From Chondrosia reniformis (taxonomy: Eukaryota; Porifera; Demospongiae; Chondrillida; Chondrillidae), in contig OX359197.1 in the NCBI GenBank assembly GCA_947172415.1, positions 4,837,673 to 4,901,672 of the forward strand: DNA of 64,000 bases, read 5' to 3'. Below, one piece after another: positions 25,153 through 50,650 of this stretch. The notes beneath the pieces were generated by a model that ran no database searches, was not told the DNA's origin, and saw nothing but the letters and a program-made list of their open reading frames with translations. Positions within the stretch are counted from its first letter, which is position 1; each line of letters opens with the position of its first letter. Both the position numbers and the translations under genes were made by a program.

Positions 25153-28100
25153 GACCATGACAGCCCTCAATGTATATACATTAAATTCTGGTATACAAAG
25201 TTAATGTATGGTGAGAGATAGGGCAAATTTTAAGTTTCATCAAAATTTCAAAAACCCATTGGACATGCTCTATAGATGTCTGTGAATGCTGACACAAAGA
25301 TTTAGCTTCATATCTCTCCATTTGATAGAGTGACAGCCCTCAATGTACATAAAATTCTGGTATACAAAGTTAATGTATTGTGAGAGATAGGGCAAATTTT
25401 AAGTTTCATCAAAATTTCAAAAACCCATTAAACGTGCTCTATAGATGTCTGTGAATGCTGACACAAAGATTTAGCTTCATATCTCTCCATTTGATAGAGT
25501 GACAGCCCTCAATGTACATAAAATTCTCGTATACAAAGTTAATGTATTGTGAGAGATAGGGCAAATTTTAAGTTTCATCAAAATTTCAAAAACCCATTGA
25601 ACGTGCTCTATAGATGTCTGTGAATGCTGACACAAAGATTTAGCTTCATATCTCTCCATTTGATAGAGTGACAGCCCTCAATGTACATAAAATTCTGGTA
25701 TACAAAGTTAATGTATTGTGAGAGATAGGGCAAATTTTAAGTTTCATCAAAATTTCAAAAACCCATTAAACGTGCTCTATAGATGTCTGTGAATGCTGAC
25801 ACAAAGATTTAGCTTCATATCTCTCCATTTGATAGAGTGACAGCCATCAATGTACATAAAATTCTCGTATACAAAGTTAATGTATTGTGAGAGATAGGGC
25901 AAATTTTAAGTTTCATCAAAATTTCAAAAACCCATTGAACGTGCTCTATAGATGTCTGTGAATGCTGACACAAAGATTTAGCTTCATATCTCTCCATTTG
26001 ATAGAGTGACAGCCCTCAATGTACATAAAATTCTGGTATACAAAGTTAATGTATTGTGAGAGATAGGGCAAATTTTAAGTTTCATCAAAATTTCAAAAAC
26101 CCATTGAACGTGCTCTATAGATGTCTGTGAATGCTGACACAAAGATTTAGCTTCATATCTCTCCATTTGATAGAGTGACAGCCCTCAATGTACATAAAAT
26201 TCTGGTATACAAAGTTAATGTATTGTGAGAGATAGGGCAAATTTTAAGTTTCATCAAAATTTCAAAAACCCATTGAACGTGCTCTATAGATGTCTGTGAA
26301 TGCTGACACAAAGATTTAGCTTCATATCTCTCCATTTGATAGAGTGACAGCCCTCAATGTACATAAAATTCTGGTATTCAAAGTTAATGTATGGTGAGAG
26401 ATATATAGGGCAAATTTTAAGTTTCATCAAAATTTCAAAAACCCATTGGACATGCTCTATAGATGTCTGTGAATGCTGACACAAAGATTTAGCTTCATAT
26501 CTCTCCATTTGATAGAGTGACAGCCCTCAATGTACATAAAATTCTGGTATACAAAGTTAATGTATTGTGAGAGATAGGGCAAATTTTAAGTTTCAGTAAA
26601 ATTTCAAAAACCCATTGAACGTGCTCTATAGATGTCTGTGAATGCTGACACAAAGATTTAGCTTCATATCTCTCCATTTGATAGAGTGACAGCCCTCAAT
26701 GTACATAAAATTCTCGTATACAAAGTTAATGTATTGTGAGAGATAGGGCAAATTTTAAGTTTCATCAAAATTTCAAAAACCCATTGAACGTGCTCTATAG
26801 ATGTCTGTGAATGCTGACACAAAGATTTAGCTTCATATCTCTCCATTTGATAGAGTGACAGCCCTCAATGTACATAAAATTCTGGTATACAAAGTTAATG
26901 TATTGTGAGAGATAGGGCAAATTTTAAGTTTCATCAAAATTTCAAAAACCCATTGAACGTGCTCTATAGATGTCTGTGAATGCTGACACAAAGATTTAGC
27001 TTCATATCTCTCCATTTGATAGAGTGACAGCCCTCAATGTACATAAAATTCTGGTATTCAAAGTTAATGTATGGTGAGAGATATATAGGGCAAATTTTAA
27101 GTTTCATCAAAATTTCAAAAACCCATTGGACATGCTCTATAGATGTCTGTGAATGCTGACACAAAGATTTAGCTTCATATCTCTCCATTTGATAGAGTGA
27201 CAGCCCTCAATGTACATAAAATTCTCGTATACAAAGTTAATGTATTGTGAGAGATAGGGCAAATTTTAAGTTTCATCAAAATTTCAAAAACCCATTGAAC
27301 GTGCTCTATAGATGTCTGTGAATGCTGACACAAAGATTTAGCTTCATATCTCTCCATTTGATAGAGTGACAGCCCTCAATGTACATAAAATTCTGGTATA
27401 CAAAGTTAATGTATTGTGAGAGATAGGGCAAATTTTAAGTTTCATCAAAATTTCAAAAACCCATTGAACGTGCTCTATAGATGTCTGTGAATGCTGACAC
27501 AAAGATTTAGCTTCATATCTCTCCATTTGATAGAGTGACAGCCCTCAATGTACATAAAATTCTGGTATTCAAAGTTAATGTATGGTGAGAGATATATAGG
27601 GCAAATTTTAAGTTTCATCAAAATTTCAAAAACCCATTGGACATGCTCTATAGATGTCTGTGAATGCTGACACAAAGATTTAGCTTCATATCTCTCCATT
27701 TGATAGAGTGACAGCCCTCAATGTACATAAAATTCTCGTATACAAAGTTAATGTATTGTGAGAGATAGGGCAAATTTTAAGTTTCATCAAAATTTCAAAA
27801 ACCCATTGAACGTGCTCTATAGATGTCTGTGAATGCTGACACAAAGATTTAGCTTCATATCTCTCCATTTGATAGAGTGACAGCCCTCAATGTACATAAA
27901 ATTCTGGTATACAAAGTTAATGTATTGTGAGAGATAGGGCAAATTTTAAGTTTCATCAAAATTTCAAAAACCCATTGAACGTGCTCTATAGATGTCTGTG
28001 AATGCTGACACAAAGATTTAGCTTCATATCTCTCCATTTGATAGAGTGACAGCCCTCAATGTACATAAAATTCTGGTATTCAAAGTTAATGTATGGTGAG

Positions 28101-29063
28101 AGATATATAGGGCAAATTTTAAGTTTCATCAAAATTTCAAAAACCCATTGGACATGCTCTATAGATGTCTGTGAATGCTGACACAAAGATTTAGCTTCAT
28201 ATCTCTCCATTTGATAGAGTGACAGCCCTCAATGTACATAAAATTCTCGTATACAAAGTTAATGTATTGTGAGAGATAGGGCAAATTTTAAGTTTCATCA
28301 AAATTTCAAAAACCCATTGAACGTGCTCTATAGATGTCTGTGAATGCTGACACAAAGATTTAGCTTCATATCTCTCCATTTGATAGAGTGACAGCCATCA
28401 ATGTACATAAAATTCTCGTATACAAAGTTAATGTATTGTGAGAGATAGGGCAAATTTTAAGTTTCATCAAAATTTCAAAAACCCATTGAACGTGCTCTAT
28501 AGATGTCTGTGAATGCTGACACAAAGATTTAGCTTCATATCTCTCCATTTGATAGAGTGACAGCCCTCAATGTACATAAAATTCTGGTATACAAAGTTAA
28601 TGTATTGTGAGAGATAGGGCAAATTTTAAGTTTCAGTAAAATTTCAAAAACCCATTGAACGTGCTCTATAGATGTCTGTGAATGCTGACACAAAGATTTA
28701 GCTTCATATCTCTCCATTTGATAGAGTGACAGCCCTCAATGTACATAAAATTCTGGAATACAAAGTTAATGTATTGTGAGAGATAGGGCAAATTTTAAGA
28801 TTCATCAAAATTTCAAAAACCCATTGAACGTGCTCTATAGATGTCTGTGAATGCTGACACAAAGATTTAGCTTCATATCTCTCCATTTGATAGAGTGACA
28901 GCCCTCAATGTACATAAAATTCTGGTATACAAAGATAATGTATTGTGAGAGATAGGGCAAATTTTAAGTTTCATCAAATTTTCAAAAACCCATTGAACGT
29001 GCTCTATAGATGTTTGTGAATGCTGACACAAAGATTTAGTTTCATATCTCTCCATTTGATAGA
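25153..29063. repeat. Satellite segment 1, about 23 monomers with a 511-bp trimer
   Basis: From about 26.3 to 28.4 kb three monomer variants (CTCGTATAC, CTGGTATAC, and CTGGTATTC with ATATATAGGG) recur in that order every 511 bp, a local three-monomer higher-order repeat. The first monomer is incomplete. Confidence 0.9.
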
Positions 29064-30122
29064 GTTACAGAACTACAGTTAATGTACTGTTTTGTTAGAG
29101 AAAATTGCGTAATACTATATATGGCCGACCGTTAGAAGGTTTAATATTAGAATAAAGTCAAAATTCCATACTATATCTGAAAATATAGAATACTTTCCAA
29201 TTTTTTATACATAGGGATATGCACTTTGTAGTACTTGATTGTTATTGAAGTACTATCTATCCATATATTTTATATGGATCTCGTTAAAGTGAAATTTCGC
29301 CAATCGACAGCCAACGAAACTCCAAAGAAAAAAAGTTGGACCATACCGAACGCTACCATCCACGACGCTCATAGGCCGGGATCGGTGGTAACGCTCTGCC
29401 GAGTTGAGCTTTGGGTGTCACTTGCGTGAGAAGAACCAGTTCTTCTCGATATGGCCGACTCATATGAATCCTTAAAGATATCAGATGCCAATCCCACATT
29501 ACGTGGAACCCCCCCGAAATCCGGATTATTGGTGAGCACGTCTCTATGGCACCAACCGATTAGGAGACAGCTTCAGAGTCTAAGCGCTACCAACCTCTAT
29601 GGGAACCGCAACCACCATAGAGATGTGTCCAGGTAGGCCTACTATATAAGGATTTTCGCTTCTATTTATATGAAGTTTTGTCCAAAGAAAACGGTTGTGG
29701 TTGGGACCTTTTTTAATACATTTCTCGTTATTTCCAGATCAGTGAATTGTTTCAAGCAAGTTTAAAGACATAGGCAGTATTAGTGGTTCACCTGAAAACT
29801 GGGAAAAGCGAGACAAATCCTGTAAGTGTCTTGATGGGCCGAGGAGAACGACTTTTCTGATCCCAATTATTTTCGAGAAATCGTCAATTTATTCCACTTT
29901 AATTCCAGACCAGTGAACCATTCCAAGCAATTTTACACACATACGCAGTATTTCCAATACATCTCAAAACTGTGGCAAATGGATAAAAGCCTGTATGTGT
30001 CTTGGTGGAGGGAGGAGAGCGACTTTTCATGATACAGAAAACTAGATATAGTGAGGGATCCGATATTTATCGCCTGTACGATATTAATGTCTATGATCGA
30101 TATTTCAACTAGGTCGTTTTTT
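29064..30122 (+). repeat. Satellite interblock 1 (1.06 kb)
   Basis: Joins the monomer after TGATAGAG and returns at TAGATGTCTGTGAATG, replacing about 110 bp of one monomer. Contains an AT-rich left third; two short plus frames (29235-29429; 29451-29636, MADSYESLKISDANPTLRG...); donor-like sites TTATTG/GTGAGC (about 29529) and TCCAG/GTAGGC; and two diverged direct repeats of about 130 bp spaced 171 bp (CCAGATCAGTGAATTG at 29734, CCAGACCAGTGAACC at 29905). Subtype A (CTTGATGGGCCG). Confidence 0.9.
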
Positions 30123-33100
30123 AGATGTCTGTGAATGCTGACACAACCATTTAGCTTCATATCTCTCCATTTGATAGAGTAACAGCCTTCAATGTAAATT
30201 AAATTCTGGTATACAAATATAATGTATTGTGAGAGATAGGGCAAATTTTAAGTTTCATCAAAATTTCAAAAACCCATTGGACAGGTTCTATAGATGTCTG
30301 TGAATGCAGACACAAAGATTTAGCTTCATATCTCTCCATTTGATAGAGTGACAGCCCTCAATGTACATAAAATTCTCGTATACAAAGATAATGTATTGTG
30401 AGAGATAGGGCAAATTTTAAGCTTCATCAAAATTTCAAAAACCCATTGAACGTGCTCTATAGATGTCTGTGAATGCTGACACAAAGATTTAGCTTCATAT
30501 CTCCCCATTTGATAGAGTGACAGCCCTCAATGTAAATTAAATTCTTGTAAACAAAGATAATGTATTGTGAGAGATAGGGCAAATTTTAAGTTTCAGTACA
30601 ATTTCAAAAACCCATTGGACATGCTCTATAGATGTCTGTGAATGCTGAAACAACCATTTAGCTTCATATCTCCCCATTTGATAGAGTGACAGCCCTCAAT
30701 GTAAATTAAATTCTGGTATACAAAGATAATGTATTGTGAGAGATAGGGCAAATTTTAAGTTTCAGTAAAATTTCAAAAACCCATTGAACATGCTCTATAG
30801 ATGTCTGTGAATGCTGAAACAACCATTTAGCTTCATATCTCTCCATTTGATAGAGTGACAACCCTCAATGTACATAAAATTCTGGTATACAAAGTTAATG
30901 TATGGTGAGAGATAAGGCAAATTTTAAGTTTCATCAAAATTTTAAAAACCCATTGAACGTGCTCTATAGATGTCTGTGAATGCTGACACAAAGATTTAGC
31001 TTCATATCTCCCCATTTGATAGAGTGACAGCCCTCAATGTAAATTAAATTCTTGTAAACAAAGATAATGTATTGTGAGAGATAGGGCAAATTTTAAGTTT
31101 CAGTACAATTTCAAAAACCCATTGGACATGCTCTATAGATGTCTGTGAATGCTGAAACAACCATTTAGCTTCATATCTCCCCATTTGATAGAGTGACAGC
31201 CCTCAATGTAAATTAAATTCTGGTATACAAAGATAATGTATTGTGAGAGATAGGGCAAATTTTAAGTTTCAGTAAAATTTCAAAAACCCATTGAACATGC
31301 TCTATAGATGTCTGTGAATGCTGAAACAACCATTTAGCTTCATATCTCTCCATTTGATAGAGTGACAACCCTCAATGTACATAAAATTCTGGTATACAAA
31401 GTTAATGTATTGTGAGAGATAAGGCAAATTTTAAGTTTCATCAAAATTTTAAAAACCCATTAGACGTGCTCTATAGATGTCTGTGAATGCTGACACAAAG
31501 ATTTAGCTTCATATCTCTCCATTTGATAGAGTGACAGCCCTCAATGTACATTAAATTCTGGTATATAAATATAATGTATTGTGAGAGATAGGGCAAATTT
31601 TAAGTTTCATCAAAATTTCAAAAATCCATTGGACATGCTCTTTAGATGTCTGTGAATGCTGATACAACCATTTAGCTTCATATCTCTCCATTTGATTGAG
31701 TGACAGCCCTCAATGTACATTAAATTCTGGTATACAAAGTTAATGTATTGTGAGAGATAGGGCAAATTTTAAGTTTCATCAAAATTTCAAAAACCCATTG
31801 GACAGGTTCTATAGATGTCTGTGAATGCAGACACAAAGATTTAGCTTCATATCTCTCCATTTGATAGAGTGATAGCCCTCAATGTACATAAAATTCTGGT
31901 ATACAAAGATAATGTATTGTGAGAGATAAGGCAAATTTTAAGCTTCATCAAAATTTCAAAAACCCATTGAACGTGCTCTATAGATGTCTGTGAATGCTGA
32001 CACAAAGATTTAGCTTCATATCTCCCCATTTGATAGAGTGACAGCCCTCAATGTAAATTAAATTCTTGTAAACAAAGATAATGTATTGTGAGAGATAGGG
32101 CAAATTTTAAGTTTCAGTAAAATTCCAAAAACCCATTGGACATGCTCTATAGATGTCTGTGAATGCTGAAACAACCATTTAGCTTCATATCTCCCCATTT
32201 GATAGAGTGACAGCCCTCAATGTACATAAAATTCTGGTATACAAAGTTAATGTATGGTGAGATATAAGGCAAATTTTAAGTTTCATCAAAATTTTAAAAA
32301 CCCATTGGACGTGCTCTATAGATGTCTGTGAATGCTGACACAAAGATTTAGCTTCATATCTCTCCATTTGATAGAGTGACAGCCCTCAATGTACATTAAA
32401 TTCTGGTATATAAAGATAATGTATTGTGAGAGATAGGGCAAATTTTAAGTTTCATCAAAATTTCAAAAATCCATTGGACATGCTCTATAGATGTCTGTGA
32501 ATGCTGATACAACCATTTAGCTTCATATCTCTCCATTTGATTGAGTGACAGCCCTCAATGTACATTAAATTCTGGCATACAAAGTTAATGTATTGTGAGA
32601 GATAGGGCAAATTTTAAGTTTCATCAAAATTTCAAAAACCCATTGGACATGCTTTATAGATGTCTGTGAATGCTGACACAAAGATGTAGCTACATATCTC
32701 TCTATTTGATAGAGTGACAGCCCTCAATGTACATAAAATTCTGGTATACAAAGTTAATGTATTGTGAGAGATAGGGCAAATTTTAAGTTTCATCAAAATT
32801 TCAAAAACCCATTGAACGTGCTCTATAGATGTCTGTGAATGCTGACACAAAGATTTAGCTTCATATCTCTCCATTTGATAGAGTGACAGCCCTCAATGTA
32901 CATAAAATTCTGGTATACAAAGATAATGTATTGTGAGAGATAGGGCAAATTTTAAGTTTTATCAAAATTTCAAAAACCCATTGGACGTGCTCTATAGATG
33001 TCTGTGAATGCTGACACAACCATTTAGCTTCATATCTCTCCATTTGATAGAGTGACAGCCTTCAATGTACATATAATTCTGGTATACAAAGTTAATGTAT

Positions 33101-34065
33101 TGTGAGAGATAGGGCAAATTTTAAGTTTCAGTAAAATTTCAAAAACCCATTGAACGTGCTCTATAGATGTCTGTGAATGCTGACACAAAGATTTAGCTTC
33201 ATATCTCTCCATTTGATAGAGTGACAGCCCTCAATGTACATAAAATTCTGGTATACAAAGATAATGTATTGTGAGAGATAGGGCAAATTTTAAGTTTCAT
33301 CAAATTTTCAAAAACCCATTGAACGTGCTCTATAGATGTTTGTGAATGCTGACACAAAGATTTAGCTTCATATCTCTCCATTTGATAGAGTGACAGCCCT
33401 CAATGTACATAAAATTCTGGAATACAAAGTTAATGTATTGTGAGAGATAGGGCAAAATTTAAGTTTCAGTAAAATTTCAAAAACCCATTGAACGTGCTCT
33501 ATAGATGTCTGTGAATGCTGACACAAAGATTTAGCTTCATATCTCTCCATTTGATAGAGTGACAGCCCTCAATGTACATAAAATTCTGGTATACAAAGAT
33601 AATGTATTGTGAGAGATAGGGCAAATTTTAAGTTTCATCAAATTTTCAAAAACCCATTGAACGTGCTCTATAGATGTTTGTGAATGCTGACACAAAGATT
33701 TAGCTTCATATCTCTCCATTTGATAGAGTGACAGCCCTCAATGTACATAAAATTCTGGAATACAAAGTTAATGTATTGTGAGAGATAGGGCAAATTTTAA
33801 GATTCATCAAAATTTCAAAAACCCATTGAACGTGCTCTATAGATGTCTGTGAATGCTGACACAAAGATTTAGCTTCATATCTCTCCATTTGATAGAGTGA
33901 CAGCCCTCAATGTACATAAAATTCTGGTATACAAAGATAATGTATTGTGAGAGATAGGGCAAATTTTAAGTTTCATCAAATTTTCAAAAACCCATTGAAC
34001 GTGCTCTATAGATGTTTGTGAATGCTGACACAAAGATTTAGCTTCATATCTCTCCATTTGATAGA
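30123..34065. repeat. Satellite segment 2, about 23 monomers
   Basis: Monomers here are more diverged than in segment 1. Many carry CAACCATTTAGC, AAATTAAATTCTTG or CTCCCCATTTG variants, and several lack the 60-codon frame. Confidence 0.9.
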
Positions 34066-35124
34066 GTTACAGAACTACAGTTAATGTACTGTTTTGTTAG
34101 AGAAAATTGCGTAATACTATATATGGCCGACCGTTAGAAGGTTTAATATTAGAATAAAGTCAAAATTCCATACTATATCTGAAAATATAGAATTCTTTCC
34201 AATTTTTTATACATAGGGATATGCACTTTGTAGTACTTGATTGTTATTGAAGTACTATCTATCCATATATTTTATATGGATCTCGTTAAAGTGAAATTTC
34301 GCCAATCGACAGCCAACGAAACTCCAAAGAAAAAAAGTTGGACCATACCGAACGCTACCATCCACGACGCTCATAGGCCGGGATCGGTGGTAACGCTCTG
34401 CCGAGTTGAGCTTTGGGTGTCACTTGCGTGAGAAGAACCAGTTCTTCTCGATATGGCCGACTCATATGAATCCTTAAAGATATCAGATGCCAATCCCACA
34501 TTACGTGGAACCCCCCCGAAATCCGGATTATTGGTGAGCACGTCTCTATGGCACCAACCGATTAGGAGACAGCTTCAGAGTCTAAGCGCTACCAACCTCT
34601 ATGGGAACCGCAACCACCATAGAGATGTGTCCAGGTAGGCCTACTATATAAGGATTTTCGCTTCTATTTATATGAAGTTTTGTCCAAAGAAAACGGTTGT
34701 GGTTGGGACCTTTTTTAATACATTTCTCGTTATTTCCAGATCAGTGAATTGTTTCAAGCAAGTTTAAAGACATAGGCAGTATTAGTGGTTCACCTGAAAA
34801 CTGGGAAAAGCGAGACAAATCCTGTAAGTGTCTTGATGGGCCGAGGAGAACGACTTTTCTGATCCCAATTATTTTCGAGAAATCGTCAATTTATTCCACT
34901 TTAATTCCAGACCAGTGAACCATTCCAAGCAATTTTACACACATACGCAGTATTTCCAATACATCTCAAAACTGTGGCAAATGGATAAAAGCCTGTATGT
35001 GTCTTGGTGGAGGGAGGAGAGCGACTTTTCATGATACAGAAAACTAGATATAGTGAGGGATCCGATATTTATCGCCTGTACGATATTAATGTCTATGATC
35101 GATATTTCAACTAGGTCGTTTTTT
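34066..35124 (+). repeat. Satellite interblock 2 (1.06 kb)
   Basis: Nearly identical to interblock 1, subtype A; one visible change is AGAATTCTTTCC for AGAATACTTTCC. Confidence 0.9.
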
Positions 35125-36538: not shown

Positions 36539-37602
36539 GTTACAGAACTACAGTTAATGTACTGTTTTGTTAGAGAAAATTGCGTAATACTATATATGGC
36601 CGACCGTTAGAAGGTTTAATATTAGAATAAAGTCAAAATTCCATACTATATCTGAAAATATAGAATACTTTCCAATTTTTTATACATAGGGATATGCACT
36701 TTGTAGTACTTGATTGTTATTGAAGTACTATCTATCCATATATTTTATATGGATCTCGTTAAAGTGAAATTTCGTCAATCGACAGCCAACGAAACTCCAA
36801 AGAAAAAAAGTTGGACCATACCGAACGCTACCATCCACGACGCTCATAGGCCGGGATCGGTGGTAACGCTCTGCCGAGTTGAGCTTTGGGTGTCACTTGC
36901 GTGAGAAGAACCAGTTCTTCTCGATATGGCCGACTCATATGAATCCTTAAAGATATCAGATGCCAATCCCACATTACGTGGAACCCCCCCGAAATCCGGA
37001 TTATTGGTGAGCACGTCTCTATGGCACCAACCGATTAGGAGACAGCTTCAGAGTCTAAGCGCTACCAACCTCTATGGGAACCGCAACCACCATAGAGATG
37101 TGTCCAGGTAGGCCTACTATATAAGGATTTTCGCTTCTATTTATATGAAGTTTTGTCCAAAGAAAACGGTTGTGGTTGGGACCTTTTTTAATACATTTCT
37201 CGTTATTTCCAGATCAGTGAATTGTTTCAAGCAAGTTTAAAGACATAGGCAGTATTAGTGGTTCACCTGAAAACTGGGAAAAGCGAAACAAATCCTGTAA
37301 GTGTCTTGAAGGGCCGAGGAGAACGACTTTTCTGATCCCAATTATTTTCGAGAAATCGTCAATTTATTCCACTTTAATTCCAGACCAGTGAACCGTTCCA
37401 AGCAATTTTACACACATACGCAGTATTTCCAATACATCTCAAAACTGTGGCAAATGGATAATATAAAAGCCTGTATGTGTCTTGGTGGAGGGAGGAGAGC
37501 GACTTTTCATGATACAGAAAACTAGATATAGTGAGGGATCCGATATTTATCGCCTGTACGATATTAATGTCTATGATCGATATTTCAACTAGGTCGTTTT
37601 TT
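36539..37602 (+). repeat. Satellite interblock 3 (1.06 kb)
   Basis: Subtype B: CTTGAAGGGCCG, TTTCGTCAATCG and AGCGAAACAAATCC. Has an extra short insertion (GGATAATATAAAAGCC) shared only with interblock 4. Confidence 0.9.
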
Positions 37603-39011
37603 AGATGTCTGTGAATGCTGACACAACCATTTAGCTTCATATCTCTCCATTTGATAGAGTGACAGCCCTCAATGTACATATAATTCTGGTATACAAAAGT
37701 TAATGTATTGTGAGAGATAGGGCAAATTTTAAGTTTCATCAAAATTTCAAAAACCAATTGAACGTGCTCAATAGATGTCTGTGAATGCTGACACAAAGAT
37801 TTAGCTTCATATCTCTCCATTTGATAGAGTGACAGCCCTCAATGTACATAAAATTCTGGAATACAAAGTTAATGTATTGTGAGAGATAGGGCAAATTTTA
37901 AGATTCATCAAAATTTCAAAAACCCATTGAACGTGCTCTATAGATGTCTGTGAATGCTGACACAAAGATTTAGCTTCATATCTCTCCATTTGATAGAGTG
38001 ACAGCCCTCAATGTACATTAAATTCTGGTATACAAAGATAATGTATTGTGAGAGATAGGGCAAATTTTAAGTTTTATCAAAATTTCAAAAACCCATTGAA
38101 TGTTCTCTATAGATGTCTGTGAATGCTGACACAAAGATTTAGCTTCATATCTCTCCATTTGATAGAGTGACAGCCCTCAATGTACATTAAATTCTGGTAT
38201 ATAAAGATAATGTATTGTGAGAGATAGGGCAAATTTTAAGTTTCATCAAAATTTCAAAAATCCATTGGACATGCTCTATAGATGTCTGTGAATGCTGATA
38301 CAACCATTTAGCTTCATATCTCTCCATTTGATTGAGTGACAGCCCTCAATGTACATTAAATTCTGGTATACAAAGATAATGTATTGTGAGAGATAGAGCA
38401 AATTTTAAGTTTCATCAAAATTTCAAAAATCCATTGGACATGCTCTATAGATGTCTGTGAATGCTGATACAACCATTTAGCTTCATATCTCTCCATTTGA
38501 TTGAGTGACAGCCCTCAATGTACATTAAATTCTGGTATACAAAGTTAATGTATTGTGAGAGATAGGGCAAATTTTAAGTTTCATCAAAATTTCAAAAACC
38601 CATTGGACATGCTTTATAGATGTCTGTGAATGCTGACACAAAGATGTAGCTACATATCTCTCTATTTGATAGAGTGACAGCCCTCAATGTACATAAAATT
38701 CTGGTATACAAAGTTAATGTATTGTGAGAGATAGGGCAAATTTTAAGTTTCATCAAAATTTCAAAAACCCATTGAACGTGCTCTATAGATGTCTGTGAAT
38801 GCTGACACAAAGATTTAGCTTCATATCTCTCCATTTGATAGAGTGACAGCCCTCAATGTACATAAAATTCTGGTATACAAAGATAATGTATTGTGAGAGA
38901 TAGGGCAAATTTTAAGTTTCATCAAAATTTCAAAAACCCATTGGACGTGCTCTATAGATGTCTGTGAATGCTGACACAAAGATTTAGCTTCATATCTCTC
39001 CACTTGATAGA
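37603..39011. repeat. Satellite segment 4, about 8.3 monomers
   Basis: The monomer series, including a 148-codon run-on frame and an 80-codon variant, is repeated almost exactly in segment 5. Together with interblock 3 it forms one 2473-bp unit. Confidence 0.9.
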
Positions 39012-40075
39012 GTTACAGAACTACAGTTAATGTACTGTTTTGTTAGAGAAAATTGCGTAATACTATATATGGCCGACCGTTAGAAGGTTTAATATTAGAA
39101 TAAAGTCAAAATTCCATACTATATCTGAAAATATAGAATACTTTCCAATTTTTTATACATAGGGATATGCACTTTGTAGTACTTGATTGTTATTGAAGTA
39201 CTATCTATCCATATATTTTATATGGATCTCGTTAAAGTGAAATTTCGTCAATCGACAGCCAACGAAACTCCAAAGAAAAAAAGTTGGACCATACCGAACG
39301 CTACCATCCACGACGCTCATAGGCCGGGATCGGTGGTAACGCTCTGCCGAGTTGAGCTTTGGGTGTCACTTGCGTGAGAAGAACCAGTTCTTCTCGATAT
39401 GGCCGACTCATATGAATCCTTAAAGATATCAGATGCCAATCCCACATTACGTGGAACCCCCCCGAAATCCGGATTATTGGTGAGCACGTCTCTATGGCAC
39501 CAACCGATTAGGAGACAGCTTCAGAGTCTAAGCGCTACCAACCTCTATGGGAACCGCAACCACCATAGAGATGTGTCCAGGTAGGCCTACTATATAAGGA
39601 TTTTCGCTTCTATTTATATGAAGTTTTGTCCAAAGAAAACGGTTGTGGTTGGGACCTTTTTTAATACATTTCTCGTTATTTCCAGATCAGTGAATTGTTT
39701 CAAGCAAGTTTAAAGACATAGGCAGTATTAGTGGTTCACCTGAAAACTGGGAAAAGCGAAACAAATCCTGTAAGTGTCTTGAAGGGCCGAGGAGAACGAC
39801 TTTTCTGATCCCAATTATTTTCGAGAAATCGTCAATTTATTCCACTTTAATTCCAGACCAGTGAACCGTTCCAAGCAATTTTACACACATACGCAGTATT
39901 TCCAATACATCTCAAAACTGTGGCAAATGGATAATATAAAAGCCTGTATGTGTCTTGGTGGAGGGAGGAGAGCGACTTTTCATGATACAGAAAACTAGAT
40001 ATAGTGAGGGATCCGATATTTATCGCCTGTACGATATTAATGTCTATGATCGATATTTCAACTAGGTCGTTTTTT
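39012..40075 (+). repeat. Satellite interblock 4 (1.06 kb)
   Basis: Subtype B, including the GGATAATATAAAAGCC insertion. Starts exactly 2473 bp after interblock 3. Confidence 0.9.
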
Positions 40076-41484
40076 AGATGTCTGTGAATGCTGACACAAC
40101 CATTTAGCTTCATATCTCTCCATTTGATAGAGTGACAGCCCTCAATGTACATATAATTCTGGTATACAAAAGTTAATGTATTGTGAGAGATAGGGCAAAT
40201 TTTAAGTTTCATCAAAATTTCAAAAACCAATTGAACGTGCTCAATAGATGTCTGTGAATGCTGACACAAAGATTTAGCTTCATATCTCTCCATTTGATAG
40301 AGTGACAGCCCTCAATGTACATAAAATTCTGGAATACAAAGTTAATGTATTGTGAGAGATAGGGCAAATTTTAAGATTCATCAAAATTTCAAAAACCCAT
40401 TGAACGTGCTCTATAGATGTCTGTGAATGCTGACACAAAGATTTAGCTTCATATCTCTCCATTTGATAGAGTGACAGCCCTCAATGTACATTAAATTCTG
40501 GTATATAAAGATAATGTATTGTGAGAGATAGGGCAAATTTTAAGTTTCATCAAAATTTCAAAAACCCATTGGACATGCTCTATAGATGTCTGTGAATGCT
40601 GATACAACCATTTAGCTTCATATCTCTCCATTTGATTGAGTGACAGCCCTCAATGTACATTAAATTCTGGTATACAAAGATAATGTATTGTGAGAGATAG
40701 AGCAAATTTTAAGTTTCATCAAAATTTCAAAAATCCATTGGACATGCTCTATAGATGTCTGTGAATGCTGATACAACCATTTAGCTTCATATCTCTCCAT
40801 TTGATTGAGTGACAGCCCTCAATGTACATTAAATTCTGGTATACAAAGATAATGTATTGTGAGAGATAGAGCAAATTTTAAGTTTCATCAAAATTTCAAA
40901 AATCCATTGGACATGCTCTATAGATGTCTGTGAATGCTGATACAACCATTTAGCTTCATATCTCTCCATTTGATTGAGTGACAGCCCTCAATGTACATTA
41001 AATTCTGGTATACAAAGTTAATGTATTGTGAGAGATAGGGCAAATTTTAAGTTTCATCAAAATTTCAAAAACCCATTGGACATGCTTTATAGATGTCTGT
41101 GAATGCTGACACAAAGATGTAGCTACATATCTCTCTATTTGATAGAGTGACAGCCCTCAATGTACATAAAATTCTGGTATACAAAGTTAATGTATTGTGA
41201 GAGATAGGGCAAATTTTAAGTTTCATCAAAATTTCAAAAACCCATTGAACGTGCTCTATAGATGTCTGTGAATGCTGACACAAAGATTTAGCTTCATATC
41301 TCTCCATTTGATAGAGTGACAGCCCTCAATGTACATAAAATTCTGGTATACAAAGATAATGTATTGTGAGAGATAGGGCAAATTTTAAGTTTCATCAAAA
41401 TTTCAAAAACCCATTGGACGTGCTCTATAGATGTCTGTGAATGCTGACACAAAGATTTAGCTTCATATCTCTCCACTTGATAGA
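40076..41484. repeat. Satellite segment 5, about 8.3 monomers
   Basis: Near-duplicate of segment 4 in monomer order and private variants (for example CAAAGATGTAGCTACATATC). Confidence 0.9.
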
Positions 41485-42548
41485 GTTACAGAACTACAGT
41501 TAATGTACTGTTTTGTTAGAGAAAATTGCGTAATACTATATATGGCCGACCGTTAGAAGGTTTAATATTAGAATAAAGTCAAAATTCCATACTATATCTG
41601 AAAATATAGAATACTTTCCAATTTTTTATACATAGGGATATGCACTTTGTAGTACTTGATTGTTATTGAAGTACTATCTATCCATATATTTTATATGGAT
41701 CTCGTTAAAGTGAAATTTCGTCAATCGACAGCCAACGAAACTCCAAAGAAAAAAAGTTGGACCATACCGAACGCTACCATCCACGACGCTCATAGGCCGG
41801 GATCGGTGGTAACGCTCTGCCGAGTTGAGCTTTGGGTGTCACTTGCGTGAGAAGAACCAGTTCTTCTCGATATGGCCGACTCATATGAATCCTTAAAGAT
41901 ATCAGATGCCAATCCCACATTACGTGGAACCCCCCCGAAATCCGGATTATTGGTGAGCACGTCTCTATGGCACCAACCGATTAGGAGACAGCTTCAGAGT
42001 CTAAGCGCTACCAACCTCTATGGGAACCGCAACCACCATAGAGATGTGTCCAGGTAGGCCTACTATATAAGGATTTTCGCTTCTATTTATATGAAGTTTT
42101 GTCCAAAGAAAACGGTTGTGGTTGGGACCTTTTTTAATACATTTCTCGTTATTTCCAGATCAGTGAATTGTTTCAAGCAAGTTTAAAGACATAGGCAGTA
42201 TTAGTGGTTCACCTGAAAACTGGGAAAAGCGAAACAAATCCTGTAAGTGTCTTGAAGGGCCGAGGAGAACGAGAACGACTTTTCTGATCCCAATTATTTT
42301 CGAGAAATCGTCAATTTATTCCACTTTAATTCCAGACCAGTGAACCGTTCCAAGCAATTTTACACACATACGCAGTATTTCCAATACATCTCAAAACTGT
42401 GGCAAATGGATAAAAGCCTGTATGTGTCTTGGTGGAGGGAGGAGAGCGACTTTTCATGATACAGAAAACTAGATATAGTGAGGGATCCGATATTTATCGC
42501 CTGTACGATATTAATGTCTATGATCGATATTTCAACTAGGTCGTTTTT
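41485..42548 (+). repeat. Satellite interblock 5 (1.06 kb)
   Basis: Subtype B but without the ATATAA insertion; carries a private GAGAACGAGAACGAC duplication of 6 bp. Starts 2473 bp after interblock 4. Confidence 0.9.
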
Positions 42549-45500
42549 TAGATGTCTGTGAATGCTGACACAACCATTTAGCTTCATATCTCTCCATTTG
42601 ATTGAGTGACAGCCCTCAATGTACATAAAATTCTGGTATACAAAGTTAATGTATTGTGAGAGATAGGGCAAATTTTAAGTTTCATCAAAATTTCAAAAAC
42701 CCATTGAACGTGCTCTATAGATGTCTGTGAATGCTGACACAAAGATTTAGCTTCATATCTCTCCATTTGATAGAGTGACAGCCCTCAATGTACATAAAAT
42801 TCTGGAATACAAAGTTAATGTATTGTGAGAGATAGGGCAAATTTTAAGTTTCATCAAAATTTCAAAAACCCATTGAACGTGCTCTATAGATGTCTGTGAA
42901 TGCTGACACAAAGATTTAGCTTCATATCTCTCCATTTGATAGAGTGACAGCCCTCAATGTACATAAAATTCTGGTATACAAAGTTAATGTATTGTGAGAG
43001 ATAGGGCAAATTTTAAGTTTCATCAAAATTTCAAAAACCCATTGAACGTGCTCTATAGATGTCTGTGAATGCTTACACAAAGATTTAGCTTCATATCTCT
43101 CCATTTGATAGAGTGACAGACCTCAATGTACATAAAATTCTGGTATACAAAGATAATGTATTGTGAGAGATAGGGCAAATTTTAAGTTTTATCAAAATTA
43201 CAAAAACCCATTGAACGTTCTCTATAGATGTCTGTGAATGCTGACACAAAGATTTAGCTTCATATCTCTCCATTTGATAGAGTGACAGCCCTCAATGTAC
43301 ATAAAATTCTGGTATACAAAGATAATGTATTGTGAGAGATAGGGCAAATTTTAAGTTTTATCAAAATTTCAAAAACCCATTGAACGTGCTCTATAGATGT
43401 CTGTGAATGCTGACACAAAGATTTAGCTTCATATCTCTCCATTTGATAGAGTGACAGCCCTCAATGTACATAAAATTCTGGTATACAAAGTTAATGTATT
43501 GTGAGAGATAGGGCAAATTGTAAGTTTCATCAAAATTTCAAAAACCCATTGAACGTGCTCTATAGATGTCTGTGAATGCTGACACAAAGATTTAGCTTCA
43601 TATCTCTCCATTTGATAGAGTGACAGCCCTCAATGTACATTAAATTCTGGTATACAAAGATAATGTATTGTGAGAGATAGGGCAAATTTTAAGTTTCATC
43701 AAAATTACAAAAACCCATTGAACGTGCTCTATAGATGTCTGTGAATGCTGACACAAAGATTTAGCTTCATATCTCTCCATTTGATAGAGTGACAGCCCTC
43801 AATGTACATAAAATTCTGGTATACAAAGATAATGTATTGTGAGAGATAGGGCAAATTTTAAGTTTTATGAAAATTTCAAAAACCCATTGAATGTTCTCTA
43901 TAGATGTCTGTGAATGCTGACACAAAGATTTAGCTTCATATCTCTCCATTTGATAGAGTGACAGCCCTCAATGTACATAAAATTCTGGTATACAAAGTTA
44001 ATGTATTGTGAGAGATAGGGCAAATTTTAAGTTTCATCAAAATTTCAAAAACCCATTGAACGTGCTCTATAGATGTCTGTGAATGCTGACACAAAGATTT
44101 AGCTTCATATCTCTCCATTTGATAGAGTGACAGCCCTCAATGTACATAAAATTCTGGTATACAAAGATAATGTATTGTGAGAGATAGGGCAAATTTTAAG
44201 TTTTATCAAAATTTCAAAAACCCATTGAAAGTTCTCTATAGATGTCTGTGAATGCTGACACAAAGATTTAGCTTCATATCTCTCCATTTGATAGAGTGAC
44301 AGCCCTCAATGTACATAAAATTCTGGTATACAAAGTTAATGTATTGTGAGAGATAGGGCAAATTTTAAGTTTCATCAAAATTTCAAAAACCCATTGAACG
44401 TGCTCTATAGATGTCTGTGAATGCTGACACAAAGATTTAGCTTCATATCTCTCCATTTGATAGAGTGACAGCCCTCAATGTACATAAAATTCGGGTATAC
44501 AAAGTTAATGTATTGTGAGAGATAGGGCAAATTTTAAGATTCATCAAAATTTCAAAAACCCATTGAAAGTTCTCTATAGATGTCTGTGAATGCTGACACA
44601 AAGATTTAGCTTCATATCTCTCCATTTGATAGAGTGACAGCCCTCAATGTACATAAAATTCTGGTATACAAAGTTAATGTATTGTGAGAGATAGGGCAAA
44701 TTTTAAGTTTCATCAAAATTTCAAAAACCCATTGAACGTGCTCTATAGATGTCTGTGAATGCTGACACAAAGATTTAGCTTCATATCTCTCCATTTGATA
44801 GAGTGACAGCCCTCAATGTACATAAAATTCGGGTATACAAAGTTAATGTATTGTGAGAGATAGGGCAAATTTTAAGATTCATCAAAATTTCAAAAACCCA
44901 TTGAACGTGCTCTATAGATGTCTGTGAATGCTGACACAAAGATTTAGCTTCATATCTCTCCATTTGATAGAGTGACAGCCCTCAATGTACATAAAATTCT
45001 GGTATACAAAGTTAATGTATTGTGAGAGATAGGGCAAATTTTAAGTTTCATCAAAATTTCAAAAACCCATTGAACGTGCTCTATAGATGTCTGTGAATGC
45101 TGACACAAAGATTTAGCTTCATATCTCTCCATTTGATAGAGTGACAGACCTCAATGTACATAAAATTCTGGTATACAAAGATAATGTATTGTGAGAGATA
45201 GGGCAAATTTTAAGTTTTATCAAAATTACAAAAACCCATTGAACGTTCTCTATAGATGTCTGTGAATGCTGACACAAAGATTTAGCTTCATATCTCTCCA
45301 TTTGATAGAGTGACAGCCCTCAATGTACATAAAATTCTGGTATACAAAGTTAATGTATTGTGAGAGATAGGGCAAATTTTAAGTTTCATCAAAATTTCAA
45401 AAACCCATTGAACGTGCTCTATAGATGTCTGTGAATGCTGACACAAAGATTTAGCTTCATATCTCTCCATTTGATAGAGTGACAGCCCTCAATGTACATT

Positions 45501-45985
45501 AAATTCTGGTATACAAAGATAATGTATTGTGAGAGATAGGGCAAATTTTAAGTTTCATCAAAATTTCAAAAACCCATTGAACGTGCTCTATAGATGTCTG
45601 TGAATGCTGACACAAAGATGTAGCTTCATATCTCTCCATTTGATAGAGTGACAGCCCTCAATGTACATAAAATTCTGGTATACAAAGTTAATGTATTGTG
45701 AGAGATAGGGCAAATTTTAAGTTTCAGTAAAATTTCAAAAACCCATTGAACGTGCTCTATAGATGTCTGTGAATGCTGACACAAAGATTTAGCTTCATAT
45801 CTCTCCATTTGATAGAGTGACAGCCCTCAATGTACATAAAATTCTGGAATACAAAGTTAATGTATTGTGAGAGATAGGGCAAATTTTAAGTTTCATCAAA
45901 TTTTCAAAAACCCATTGAACGTGCTCTATAGATGTTTGTGAATGCTGACACAAAGATTTAGCTTCATATCTCTCCATTTGATAGA
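42549..45985. repeat. Satellite segment 6, about 20 monomers
   Basis: Between about 43.1 and 45.4 kb two monomer types tend to alternate (AAAGTTAATG with TTTCATCAAAATTTC versus AAAGATAATG with TTTTATCAAAATTAC), suggesting a loose 338-bp dimer. Confidence 0.85.
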
Positions 45986-47042
45986 GTTACAGAACTACAG
46001 TTAATGTACTGTTTTGTTAGAGAAAATTGCGTAATACTATATATGGCCGACCGTTAGAAGGTTTAATATTAGAATAAAGTCAAAATTCCATACTATATCT
46101 GAAAATATAGAATACTTTCCAATTTTTTATACATAGGGATATGCACTTTGTAGTACTTGATTGTTATTGAAGTACTATCTATCCATATATTTTATATGGA
46201 TCTCGTTAAAGTGAAATTTCGCCAATCGACAGCCAACGAAACTCCAAAGAAAAAAAGTTGGACCATACCGAACGCTACCATCCACGACGCTCATAGGCCG
46301 GGATCGGTGGTAACGCTCTGCCGAGTTGAGCTTTGGGTGTCACTTGCGTGAGAAGAACCAGTTCTTCTCGATATGGCCGACTCATATGAATCCTTAAAGA
46401 TATCAGATGCCAATCCCACATTACGTGGAACCCCCCCGAAATCCGGATTATTGGTGAGCACGTCTCTATGGCACCAACCGATTAGGAGACAGCTTCAGAG
46501 TCTAAGCGCTACCAACCTCTATGGGAACCGCAACCACCATAGAGATGTGTCCAGGTAGGCCTACTATATAAGGATTTTCGCTTCTATTTATATGAAGTTT
46601 TGTCCAAAGAAAACGGTTGTGGTTGGGACCTTTTTTATACATTTCTCGTTATTTCCAGATCAGTGAATTGTTTCAAGCAAGTTTAAAGACATAGGCAGTA
46701 TTAGTGGTTCACCTGAAAACTGGGAAAAGCGAGACAAATCCTGTAAGTGTCTTGATGGGCCGAGGAGAACGACTTTTCTGATCCCAATTATTTTCGAGAA
46801 ATCGTCAATTTATTCCACTTTAATTCCAGACCAGTGAACCATTCCAAGCAATTTTACACACATACGCAGTATTTCCAATACATCTCAAAACTGTGGCAAA
46901 TGGATAAAAGCCTGTATGTGTCTTGGTGGAGGGAGGAGAGCGACTTTTCATGATACAGAAAACTAGATATAGTGAGGGATCCGATATTTATCGCCTGTAC
47001 GATATTAATGTCTATGATCGATATTTCAACTAGGTCGTTTTT
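45986..47042 (+). repeat. Satellite interblock 6 (1.06 kb)
   Basis: Subtype A, with a one-base shorter T run (CCTTTTTTATAC). Confidence 0.9.
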
Positions 47043-49137
47043 TAGATGTCTGTGAATGCTGACACAACCATTTAGCTTCATATCTCTCCATTTGATAGAG
47101 TAACAGCCTTCAATGTATATTAAATTCTGGTATACAAAGATAATGTATTGTGAGAGATAGGGCAAATTTTAAGTTTCATCAAAATTTCAAAAACCCATTG
47201 GACAGGTTCTATAGATGTCTGTGAATGCAGACACAAAGATTTAGCTTCATATCTCTCCATTTGATAGAGTGACAGCCCTCAATGTACATAAAATTCTGGT
47301 ATACAAAGATAATGTATTGTGAGAGATAAGGCAAATTTTAAGCTTCATCAAAATTTCAAAAACCCATTGAACGTGCTCTATAGATGTCTGTGAATGCTGA
47401 CACAAAGATTTAGCTCCATATCTCTCCATTTGATAGAGTGACAGCCCTCAATGTACATATAATTCTGGTATACAACGTTAATGTATTGTGAGAGATAGGG
47501 CAAATTTTAAATTTAAGTTTCATCAAAATTTCAAAAACCCATTGAACGTGCTCTATAGATGTCTGTGAATGCTGACACAAAGATTTAGCTCCATATCTCT
47601 CCATTTGATAGAGTGACAGCCCTCAATGTACATAAAATTCTGGTATACAAAGATAATGTATTGTGAGAGATAGGGCAAATTTTAAGTTTCATCAAAATTT
47701 CAAAAACCCATTGGACAAGCTCTATAGATGTCTGTGAATGCTGACACAAAGATTTAGCTTCATATCTCCCCATTTGATAGAGTGACAGCCCTCAATGTAA
47801 ATTAAATTCTTGTAAACAAAGATAATGTATTGTGAGAGATAGGGCAAATTTTAAGTTTCAGTAAAATTTCAAAAACCCATTGGACATGCTCTATAGATGT
47901 CTGTGAATGCTGAAACAACCATTTAGCTTCATATCTCCCCATTTGATAGAGTGACAGCCCTCAATGTAAATTAAATTCTGGTATACAAAGATAATGTATT
48001 GCGAGAGATAGGGCAAATTTTAAGTTACAGTAAAATTTCAAAAACCCATTGGACATGCTCAATAGATGTCTGTGAATGCTGAAACAACCATTTAGCTTTA
48101 TATCTCTCCATTTGATAGAGTAACAACCCTCAATGTACATAAAATTCTGGTATACAAAGTTAATGTATGGTGAGAGATAAGGCAAATTTTAAGTTTCATC
48201 AAAATTTTAAAAACCCATTGGACGTGCTCTATAGATGTCTGTGAATGCTGACACAAAGATTTAGCTTCATATCTCTCCATTTGATAGAGTGACAGCCCTC
48301 AATGTACATTAAATTCTGGTAATATAAAGATAATGTATTGTGAGAGATAGGGCAAATTTTAAGTTTCATCAAAATTTCAAAAACCCATTGAAAGTTCTCT
48401 ATAGATGTCTGTGAATGCTGACACAAAGATTTAGCTTCATATCTCTCCATTTGATAGAGTGACAGCCCTCAATGTACATAAAATTCTGGTATTCAAAGTT
48501 AATGTATGGTGAGAGATATATAGGGCAAATTTTAAGTTTCATCAAAATTTCAAAAACCCATTGAACATGCTCTATAGATGTCTGTGAATTCTGACACAAA
48601 GATTTAGCTTCATATCTCTCCATTTGATAGAGTGACAGCCCTCAATGTACATATAACTCTGGTATACAAAGTTAATGTATTGTGAGAGATAAGGCAAATT
48701 TTAAGTTTCATAAAAATTTCAAAAACCCATTGAACGTGCTCTATAGATGTCTATGAATGCTGACACAAAGATTTAGCTTCATATCTCTCCATTTGATAGA
48801 GTGACAGCCCTCAATGTACATAAAATTCTGGTATACAAAGATAATGTATTGTGAGAGATAGAGCAAATTTTAAGTTTCATCAAAATTTCAAAAACCCATT
48901 GGACATGCTCTATAGATGTCTGTGAATGCTGACACAAAGATTTAGCTTCATATCTCCCCATTTATAGAGTGACAGCCCTCAATGTAAATTAAATTCTTGT
49001 ATACAAAGATAATGTATTGTGAGAGATAGGGCAAATTTTAAGTTTCATCAAAATTTCAAAAACCCATTGAACGTGCTCTATAGATGTCTGTGAATGCTGA
49101 CACAAAGATTTAGCTTCATATCTCTCCACTTGATAGA
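47043..49137. repeat. Satellite segment 7, about 12 monomers
   Basis: A diverged series similar to the monomers after interblocks 1 and 2; one monomer carries an extra AAATTT (near 47509) and one the ATATAGGG variant. Confidence 0.9.
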
Positions 49138-50197
49138 GTTACAGAACTACAGTTAATGTACTGTTTTGTTAGAGAAAATTGCGTAATACTATATATGGCC
49201 GACCGTTAGAAGGTTTAATATTACAATAAAGTCAAAATTCCATACTATATCTGAAAATATAGAATACTTTCCAATTTTTTTATACATAGGGATATGCACT
49301 TTGTAGTACTTGATTGTTATTGAAGTACTATCTATCCATATATTTTATATGGATCTCGTTAAAGTGAAATTTCGTCAATCGACAGCCAACGAAACTCCAA
49401 AGAAAAAAAGTTGGACCATACCGAACGCTACCATCCACGACGCTCATAGGCCGGGATCGGTGGTAACGCTCTGCCGAGTTGAGCTTTGGGTGTCACTTGC
49501 GTGAGAAGAACCAGTTCTTCTCGATATGGCCGACTCATATGAATCCTTAAAGATATCAGATGCCAATCCCACATTACGTGGAACCCCCCCGAAATCCGGA
49601 TTATTGGTGAGCACATCTCTATGGCACCAACCGATTAGGAGACAGCTTCAGAGTCTAAGCGCTACCAACCTCTATGGGAACCGCAACCACCATAGAGATG
49701 TGTCCAGGTAGGCCTACTATATAAGGATTTTCGCTTCTATTTATATGAAGTTTTGTCCAAAGAAAACGGTTGTGGTTGGGACCTTTTTTAATACATTTCT
49801 CGTTATTTCCAGATCAGTGAATTGTTTCAAGCAAGTTTAAAGACATAGGCAGTATTAGTGGTTCACCTGAAAACTGGGAAAAGCGAAACAAATCCTGTAA
49901 GTGTCTTGAAGGGCCGAGGAGAACGACTTTTCTGATCCCAATTATTTTCGAGAAATCGTCAATTTATTCCACTTTAATTCCAGACCAGTGAACCGTTCCA
50001 AGCAATTTTACACACATACGCAGTATTTCCAATACATCTCAAAACTGTGGCAAATGGATAAAAGCCTGTATGTGTCTTGGTGGAGGGAGGAGAGCGACTT
50101 TTCATGATACAGAAAACTAGATATAGTGAGGGATCCGATATTTATCGCCTGTACGATATTAATGTCTATGATCGATATTTCAACTAGGTCGTTTTTT
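49138..50197 (+). repeat. Satellite interblock 7 (1.06 kb)
   Basis: Subtype B; private changes include ATTACAATAAAG and CACATCTC for CACGTCTC. Confidence 0.9.
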
Positions 50198-50650
50198 AGA
50201 TGTCTGTGAATGCTGACACAACCATTTAGCTTCATATCTCTCCATTTGATAGAGTGCCAGCCCTCAATGTACATATAATTCTGGTATACAAAGTTAATGT
50301 ATTGTGAGAGATAGGGCAAATTTTAAGTTTCATCAAAATTTCAAAAACCCATTGAACGTGCTCTATAGATGTCTGTGAATGCTGACACAAAGATATAGCT
50401 TCATATCTCTCCATTTGATAGAGTGACAGCCCTCAATGTACATAAAATTCTGGTATACAATGATAATGTATTGTGAGAGATAGGGCAAATTTTAAGTTTC
50501 ATCAAAATTTCAAAAACCCATTGAACGTGCTCTATAGATGTCTGTGAATGCTGACACAAAGATTTAGCTTCATATCTCTCCATTTGATAGAGTGACAGCC
50601 CTCAATGTACATAAAATTCTCGTATACAAAGTAAATGTATTGTGAGAGAG
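50198..50650. repeat. Satellite segment 8, last 2.7 monomers
   Basis: The array ends inside a monomer at TATTGTGAGAGAG; single-copy sequence starts at CATCAATTTAC, 50 bp from the stop codon of the small secreted-peptide gene. Confidence 0.9.

What the first reader, a model, noticed from the sequence alone, without database searches (positions are those of the whole stretch)
25153..50650. Two-component satellite array (169-bp monomer plus phase-locked 1.06-kb interblock)
Seven interblocks, nearly identical to each other, all replace the same part of a 169-bp monomer (leave after TGATAGAG, resume at TAGATGTC). This implies the interblock entered once and then spread with the array by unequal exchange or amplification, not by seven insertions. 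The 169-bp period and the 171-bp internal spacing of the interblock are both near nucleosome length, as in many centromeric satellites. I cannot say whether this is a centromere.
Basis: partly seen in the sequence, partly recalled or inferred. Interest (0 to 1): 0.8.

Follow-up and report, generated by a model that had tools for sequence, protein, structure and literature searches.

The report
Sponge satellite with an unchanging core
A repetitive DNA scattered over a sponge's chromosomes carries, between its ordinary repeats, a stretch of about 310 bases that stays almost letter-perfect in hundreds of copies while everything around it drifts, which points to an unrecognised working element, perhaps an RNA gene.

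Summary
The array is real: 169-bp monomers at 25158-50649 with seven interblocks of 1050-1057 bp, all with the same junctions. Contig lengths identify the genome as the kidney sponge Chondrosia reniformis, chromosome 9. The composite is not a local curiosity and not a chromosome-specific centromere: it recurs genome-wide, with 24 clusters of the core motif on C1 alone. The main finding is inside the interblock. About 309 bp (interblock 265-573) is nearly invariant: between subfamilies the flanks differ at 21-25% of sites and the core at 0.7-1.6% (Fisher p below 4e-16 in four of four comparisons). An exact 144-bp piece occurs 461 times and a 30-base core motif 886 times. The core has no frame kept in all copies and no Rfam or Pfam match; SRP RNA, 5S rRNA and U6 genes lie elsewhere. 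Best reading: a dispersed, locally homogenised satellite carrying a functional element, perhaps an RNA gene with the monomers as spacer. Folding support is weak (z -1.8 to -2.6), so a DNA-level element or a selfish amplification signal remains possible. No expression data were available.

The parts
25158..50649 (+). Composite satellite array: eight blocks of 169-bp monomers and seven interblocks
   Evidence: TRF, junction scan, BLAST annotation
29071..30121 (+). Interblock 1
34073..35123 (+). Interblock 2
36546..37601 (+). Interblock 3
39019..40074 (+). Interblock 4
41492..42548 (+). Interblock 5
45993..47042 (+). Interblock 6
49145..50196 (+). Interblock 7
29335..29643 (.). Near-invariant core of interblock 1 (interblock positions 265-573); strand of function unknown
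   Evidence: conservation profiles; genome counts
34337..34645 (.). Core of interblock 2
   Evidence: hit; profile as above
36810..37118 (.). Core of interblock 3
   Evidence: hit
39283..39591 (.). Core of interblock 4
   Evidence: hit
41756..42064 (.). Core of interblock 5
   Evidence: hit
46257..46565 (.). Core of interblock 6
   Evidence: hit
49410..49718 (.). Core of interblock 7
   Evidence: hit
29720..30033 (+). The two diverged repeats of interblock 1 (29720-29861 and 29891-30033) that give the 171-bp internal spacing
   Evidence: interblock 650-791 against 821-963, 75.7%
26680..28212 (+). Three identical copies of a 511-bp monomer trimer
36546..43965 (+). Three tandem copies of a 2473-bp unit (interblock plus monomers)

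Best explanation
A dispersed composite satellite of the sponge Chondrosia reniformis. Each unit is a block of 169-bp monomers plus an interblock. Arrays sit at many sites on the chromosomes, are homogenised locally by unequal exchange or amplification, and have split into subfamilies (A, the window's kind; B; C). Inside the interblock a core of about 309 bp is held nearly constant while monomers and interblock flanks diverge, so the core is functional at resident copies. The most likely function is a noncoding RNA transcription unit, with the monomers as spacer between genes, as in 5S or rDNA arrays. SHOWN: array, junctions, genome-wide recurrence, subfamilies, extreme conservation with a sharp right edge, no reading frame kept in all copies. 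INFERRED: selection as the cause, transcription, polymerase, strand, role of the RNA.
For: Core against flank: window copy versus two C copies 3/307 and 2/307 against 67/274 and 65/273; versus two B copies 4/309 and 5/309 against 57/270 and 64/261. In 31 A copies 13 of 309 core sites vary against 184 of 632 flank sites; in 18 A copies not picked by core similarity 10 of 309 against 123 of 632. 461 exact 144-mers and 886 core 30-mers with up to 3 mismatches, control 0. Nearly every base is conserved over about 300 bp, which fits an RNA gene better than scattered binding sites (inference). Next to the core TATAAGG is kept in 37 of 40 copies, a T run of 4 or more on the right in 40 of 40, an A7 run on the left in 39 of 40, which could serve as TATA box and Pol III stop signals (inference). 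On the minus strand 15 of 28 variable core sites fall in predicted unpaired positions, 31% expected (binomial p 0.01, uncorrected). A 2-nt deletion in 11 of 40 copies breaks any single reading frame.
Against: No RNA data. Fold z-scores are modest: plus strand -2.63 and -1.88, minus strand -1.84 and -2.07, and 120-base windows within the core are near zero on both strands. On the plus strand variable sites show no preference for loops (13 of 28, 39% expected; p 0.25). No covariation could be shown. No Rfam match. The side upstream of the minus-strand TATA is poorly conserved. One U6 upstream stretch showed no convincing shared upstream element by eye. The excess of rare variants in the core is not significant (11 of 13 singletons against 106 of 184, p 0.08).
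Confidence: 0.4

Rival explanations
1. The core works as DNA: a long cis element (protein-binding platform, promoter or enhancer, boundary, replication or chromatin nucleation site) repeated over the chromosomes.
For: Local folding is no better than shuffles; the core is richer in G+C (0.49-0.55 against 0.30-0.39 in the other interblock segments) and holds short palindromes (seen in the sequence and in the inverted matches); copies lie in both orientations in equal number, 447 and 439.
Against: The constraint is continuous over about 300 bp, unlike the patchy constraint usual for regulatory DNA (general knowledge).
Confidence: 0.25
2. Selfish satellite: the core is the signal by which units are amplified and spread (rolling circle, extrachromosomal circle, borrowed replication proteins); units with a broken core are lost from arrays by turnover. 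No host function.
For: C-type interblocks are 99-100% alike on many contigs (40 of 40 scored hits) and B-type 97-98% for the 39 scored full-length hits other than the query itself, so spread is recent; within-array units are recent duplicates.
Against: A copies at different sites have diverged by several percent in the flanks yet hardly in the core, so the constraint acts on resident copies, not only on the copies that spread. No fixed ends found.
Confidence: 0.2
3. Neutral homogenisation: exchange between arrays is focused on the core and keeps it identical without selection.
For: Two recombinant copies switch subfamily within or near the core: L036_4018 and L038_4146 have diverged left flanks (38/210, 51/214) and A-like right flanks (2/60, 2/60). 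The core variant at 302 does not follow the subfamilies.
Against: The right edge is sharp: in C copies 0 of 20 differences at 541-560 and 4 of 20 at 581-600, 7 of 20 at 601-620; exchange tracts would scatter their ends. The left edge is more gradual, which fits this rival better.
Confidence: 0.1
4. Centromeric satellite of chromosome 9.
For: Nucleosome-scale monomer and higher-order repeats.
Against: Many sites per chromosome: 24 clusters of the core motif on C1; other arrays on C9 itself near 0.04, 5.37, 6.16-6.19, 6.99-7.00 and 7.14-7.15 Mb.
Confidence: 0.05

Closest known systems
Cg_HINE non-autonomous Helentrons of the Pacific oyster with satellite-like central repeats (PMC7492417, abstract and passages seen)
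   Same: Satellite-like arrays, in that genome mostly of 160-180-bp monomers, dispersed over the genome together with constant non-repeat segments; related subfamilies.
   Different: There each array lies between conserved left and right flanks. Here the constant segment lies between monomer blocks, and the array edges examined (7 left, 9 right) have unrelated neighbours. The long invariant core has no counterpart in the passages I saw.
Dispersed satellites moved by circular DNA or ectopic exchange, such as Drosophila 1.688 (recalled; reviews seen only as search listings)
   Same: Short arrays at many sites, local homogenisation, subfamilies.
   Different: A nearly invariant 300-bp segment within an otherwise drifting repeat.
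Tandem RNA gene arrays with repeat spacers, such as 5S rDNA and rDNA spacers (general knowledge; this genome's own 5S copies)
   Same: Constant unit of a few hundred bases in tandem, spacer repeats free to change.
   Different: No Rfam family matches. Many clusters on many chromosomes, whereas the 47 scored 5S copies of this genome lie on C14.

Membership tests
Dispersed satellite DNA | Tandem monomers with local homogenisation | tested here: met
Dispersed satellite DNA | Many short arrays on several chromosomes | tested here: met
   interblock hits on C1, C4, C5, C6, C8, C9, C10, C12 and C14; 24 core clusters on C1
Centromeric satellite | One main site per chromosome | tested here: not met
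   24 clusters on C1; several sites on C9
Centromeric satellite | CENP-A occupancy | not testable with these tools
   no chromatin data
Helentron / HINE | Conserved left and right flanks around each array | tested here: not met
   7 left and 9 right edges have different neighbours and various monomer phases; masked flanks of 17 sources share no common flank. Only part of the genome's arrays was seen.
Helentron / HINE | Terminal inverted repeats, microsatellite and 3' palindrome at the element ends; insertion without target duplication | not tested
   no element ends could be defined and no empty site was available
Transposable element in general | Target-site duplication | tested here: inconclusive
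   edges printed; no empty site to compare
Known noncoding RNA family (Rfam 15) | Match to a covariance model | tested here: not met
   0 matches at E up to 1 for the interblock and up to 10 for the core
Noncoding RNA gene (new) | Conserved secondary structure with compensatory changes | tested here: inconclusive
   z -1.8 to -2.6; too few changes in the core for covariation
Noncoding RNA gene (new) | A discrete transcript | not testable with these tools
   no RNA data
Protein-coding gene | Reading frame kept across copies | tested here: not met
   2-nt deletion at interblock 403-405 in 11 of 40 copies; 0 Pfam families for six translated stretches

The most novel reading that the evidence does not exclude
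A new, lineage-specific noncoding RNA gene family (or equally long ultraconserved functional element) of about 900 copies that uses a satellite as its spacer and is spread over many chromosomes, with purifying selection acting on each array separately.
Probability: 0.3. Interest if true: 0.85.

Novelty: new variant of a known kind. Interest (0 to 1): 0.58.

Why it matters
Satellites are usually thought to be free to drift. A satellite whose internal segment stays letter-perfect in hundreds of copies, while flanks and monomers of its subfamilies have diverged by about a fifth, separates function from turnover in one genome. If the core is transcribed, it would be an abundant RNA missing from Rfam in an early-branching animal group; if it acts as DNA, it marks an unknown element repeated along the chromosomes. 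The exact sequence makes both readings directly testable with RNA or chromatin data from a common Mediterranean sponge.

Tried and rejected
5S, SRP and other known RNAs: no Rfam match in the interblock or core, canonical genes elsewhere; in other loci only microRNA models below their cut-offs rang, none in a core. Small protein: frame broken between copies, no Pfam match. Helentron-like carrier: no shared flanks in the loci held. Copies in other collections: none for the whole interblock in phages, for a 30-mer in viral contigs, for a 24-mer in prokaryote genomes; no sponge collection was available. Fold-based strand choice: undecided. Promoter comparison with U6: one upstream stretch only; it has a TATA-like element about 30 bases before the gene, and by eye no convincing shared upstream element. 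Often short monomer tails after the last interblock and four of nine right edges at monomer phases 105-117 were seen but not tested.

Limits: places listed by the genome search are capped, so most counts of hits are lower bounds (pattern counts are whole). Loci L040-L069 were chosen by similarity to the core and lean to identical cores; the test was therefore repeated on 18 copies not so chosen. In some searches six window repeats and the truncated copy L018 were dropped (47 to 40 rows; the 31 A rows are a subset), and gaps were not counted as differences. One search dropped the six window repeats only. Subfamily distances rest on two B and two C copies. An earlier count said 1- and 3-nt indels in the core; the recount shows a 2-nt deletion.
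Full report
OBSERVATION. Tandem Repeats Finder gives 169-bp arrays in eight blocks from 25158 to 50649. The seven gaps between them are interblocks of 1050-1057 bp, differing by 0-7 substitutions and a few short indels. All seven have the same two junctions. Two interblock stretches 171 bp apart are 75.7% alike. Within the array a 511-bp trimer occurs three times with no difference, and a 2473-bp unit (interblock plus monomers) three times at 99.5% and 97.3%. These are marks of recent unequal exchange or local amplification.

WHERE IT IS. The window is C9:4837673-4901672 of a genome of 117,379,552 bases in 15 contigs. My first guess, a sea squirt, failed its test. The contig lengths seen (C1 10.41, C4 8.95, C5 8.80, C6 8.73, C8 8.13, C9 7.70, C10 7.66, C11 7.63, C12 7.52, C14 6.75 Mb) agree to 0.01 Mb with Table 3 of the genome note of the kidney sponge Chondrosia reniformis, odChoReni1.1, 14 chromosomes and a mitochondrion (PMC12181767; passages and section 7 seen). 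The figure legends there give slightly different totals (117,390,217 and 10,413,042 bp). In its main text 'satellite' and 'centromere' occur 0 times. No held paper has both 'Chondrosia reniformis' and 'satellite DNA'; broader sponge searches showed no matching title (15 of 57 papers listed, 6 of 6). Within these searches this satellite is not in print.

GENOME-WIDE RECURRENCE. The interblock has 40 scored hits, 7 in the window and 33 elsewhere at 96-98% (lower bound). A 29-base motif right of the core occurs 162 times with up to 3 mismatches, control 0. Of 55 loci scanned (L016-L070; 7 inside the window, several overlapping) 55 contain monomer sequence; all were fetched because they, or their neighbourhood, held interblock or core sequence, so this does not show that the core never occurs alone. 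The left junction is at monomer phase 64 in 10 of 13 loci outside the window where one was annotated. The right junction varies: L029 and L034 re-enter the monomer at phase 101 after 159 and 136 further bases, and L050, L053, L058 and L060 carry a similar extension. Since the more diverged copies (L050, L058, L060) have the longer form, the window's form is probably a shortened derivative (inference). So the composite probably formed once, before the window's array, and has since spread and been homogenised site by site.

NOT A TYPICAL CENTROMERE OR ELEMENT. On C1 alone 71 exact core motifs fall in 24 clusters (joined at 20 kb) from 0.07 to 10.33 Mb, median spacing within clusters 3.2 kb (places). 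Seven left and nine right array edges have different neighbours. Left edges lie at monomer phases 59, 4, 18, 138, 77, 108 and 38, right edges at 115, 10, 105, 10, 44, 141, 112, 117 and 50; four of nine right edges fall in 105-117, which I did not follow up. Masked flanks of 17 sources share no common flanking sequence beyond interblock extensions and other repeats. Against a simple picture, two arrays (L029, L034) each lie between 1.1-kb direct repeats of their own, 91% and 90% alike and unrelated to each other; what these are is open. The nearest published case, oyster Helentrons carrying satellite-like repeats (PMC7492417, abstract and passages seen), has conserved left and right flanks around each array; that feature was tested here and not met. 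Spread through circular DNA or ectopic exchange is the likeliest route left (inference).

THE CORE. Aligning 15 interblocks (2 from the window, 13 from elsewhere) showed diversity of 0.0007-0.0032 in the middle against 0.0126-0.0349 on either side. Two further subfamilies, B (interblock 97-795 alignable, about 85%) and C (35-634 alignable, about 88%), keep interblock 281-560 at 95-100% per 40 bases in the five pieces examined. Over 265-573 the window copy differs from two C copies at 3 of 307 and 2 of 307 sites while the flanks (40-260 and 575-634) differ at 67 of 274 and 65 of 273; from two B copies at 4 of 309 and 5 of 309 against 57 of 270 and 64 of 261. Within 31 A copies 13 of 309 core sites vary against 184 of 632 flank sites. 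For 18 A copies not picked by core similarity it is 10 of 309 against 123 of 632, p 3e-13. Rare variants are not significantly enriched in the core (11 of 13 against 106 of 184 singletons, p 0.08). The right edge is sharp, the left edge fades over about 60 bases. A 30-base core motif occurs 886 times with up to 3 mismatches (447 forward, 439 reverse, control 0), an exact 144-base piece 461 times (231 and 230). Of 47 held copies, six further window repeats included, 41 have that exact piece.

WHAT THE CORE IS NOT. No Rfam match at E up to 10, none at gathering level in the window. SRP RNA lies on C6, the 47 scored 5S genes on C14, mostly about 224 bp apart, U6 on C12 with a weaker hit on C8. 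A 2-nt deletion in 11 of 40 copies breaks any common frame and six translations match no Pfam family. Pieces of the core are absent from the viral and prokaryote collections.

HOW IT MAY WORK. A constraint on nearly every base over about 300 bp, in tandem copies with a freely changing repeat spacer, resembles RNA genes such as 5S or rDNA (general knowledge). Next to the core, TATAAGG is kept in 37 of 40 copies, a T run of four or more to its right in 40 of 40 and an A7 run on the left in 39 of 40. Read on the minus strand these could be a TATA box and a Pol III stop; on the plus strand the right T run could be the stop. Variable core sites prefer predicted unpaired positions on the minus strand (15 of 28, 31% expected, p 0.01 uncorrected) but not on the plus strand (13 of 28, 39% expected, p 0.25). 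Against this, folding is only about two standard deviations better than shuffles (plus -2.63 and -1.88, minus -1.84 and -2.07), 120-base windows within the core are near zero, and the one U6 upstream stretch gave no convincing common element. I hold the RNA-gene reading at 0.4 and keep DNA-level function (0.25), selfish amplification (0.2), neutral homogenisation (0.1) and centromere (0.05) open. Two recombinant copies with the subfamily switch in or near the core (L036_4018, L038_4146) show that exchange happens there; the sharp right edge argues that exchange alone is not the cause.

VERDICT. Observation confirmed; interpretation partly supported. The array belongs to a dispersed satellite, a known kind; the invariant core inside it is the unusual part and makes it a new variant of that kind.

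Noticed in passing
7318-9408: Reverse transcriptase ORF at 7863-8690 (Pfam RVT_1, E 5e-10) between two inverted stretches of about 500 bp, 7318-7816 and 8842-9408, 86.6% alike; looks like a retroelement, perhaps Penelope-like (recalled resemblance, not tested).
   Followed up: partly
54805-55533: 242-aa ORF resembling right-handed beta-helix proteins (Pfam Beta_helix E 1.6e-4, below its cut-off).
   Followed up: partly
56039-56224 and 62220-62446: ATCC-type microsatellites.
   Followed up: no
8998-9099 and 14879-15034: Perfect 34-bp tandem repeat (3 copies) and a 25-bp repeat (6.2 copies).
   Followed up: no
L029:2-1040 and 5024-6138; L034:1066-2166 and 4869-5971: Direct repeats of about 1.1 kb on both sides of a satellite array, 91% and 90% alike, unrelated between the two loci.
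   Followed up: no
L036:4018 and L038:4146 (core starts): Interblocks with a diverged left flank and an A-type right flank: recombinants between subfamilies with the switch in or near the core.
   Followed up: partly
L018:3046 and L037:4100 (core starts): Two copies whose cores share a short insertion after interblock position 325; the L018 copy is truncated beyond about 460.
   Followed up: no
L032:4228-4356: Palindromic stretch right beside an interblock that rings several microRNA models below their cut-offs, probably a small inverted-repeat element.
   Followed up: no
G000:C14:1745529-1752807 and 1836227-1840148: Two arrays of 5S rRNA genes, mostly about 224 bp apart.
   Followed up: no
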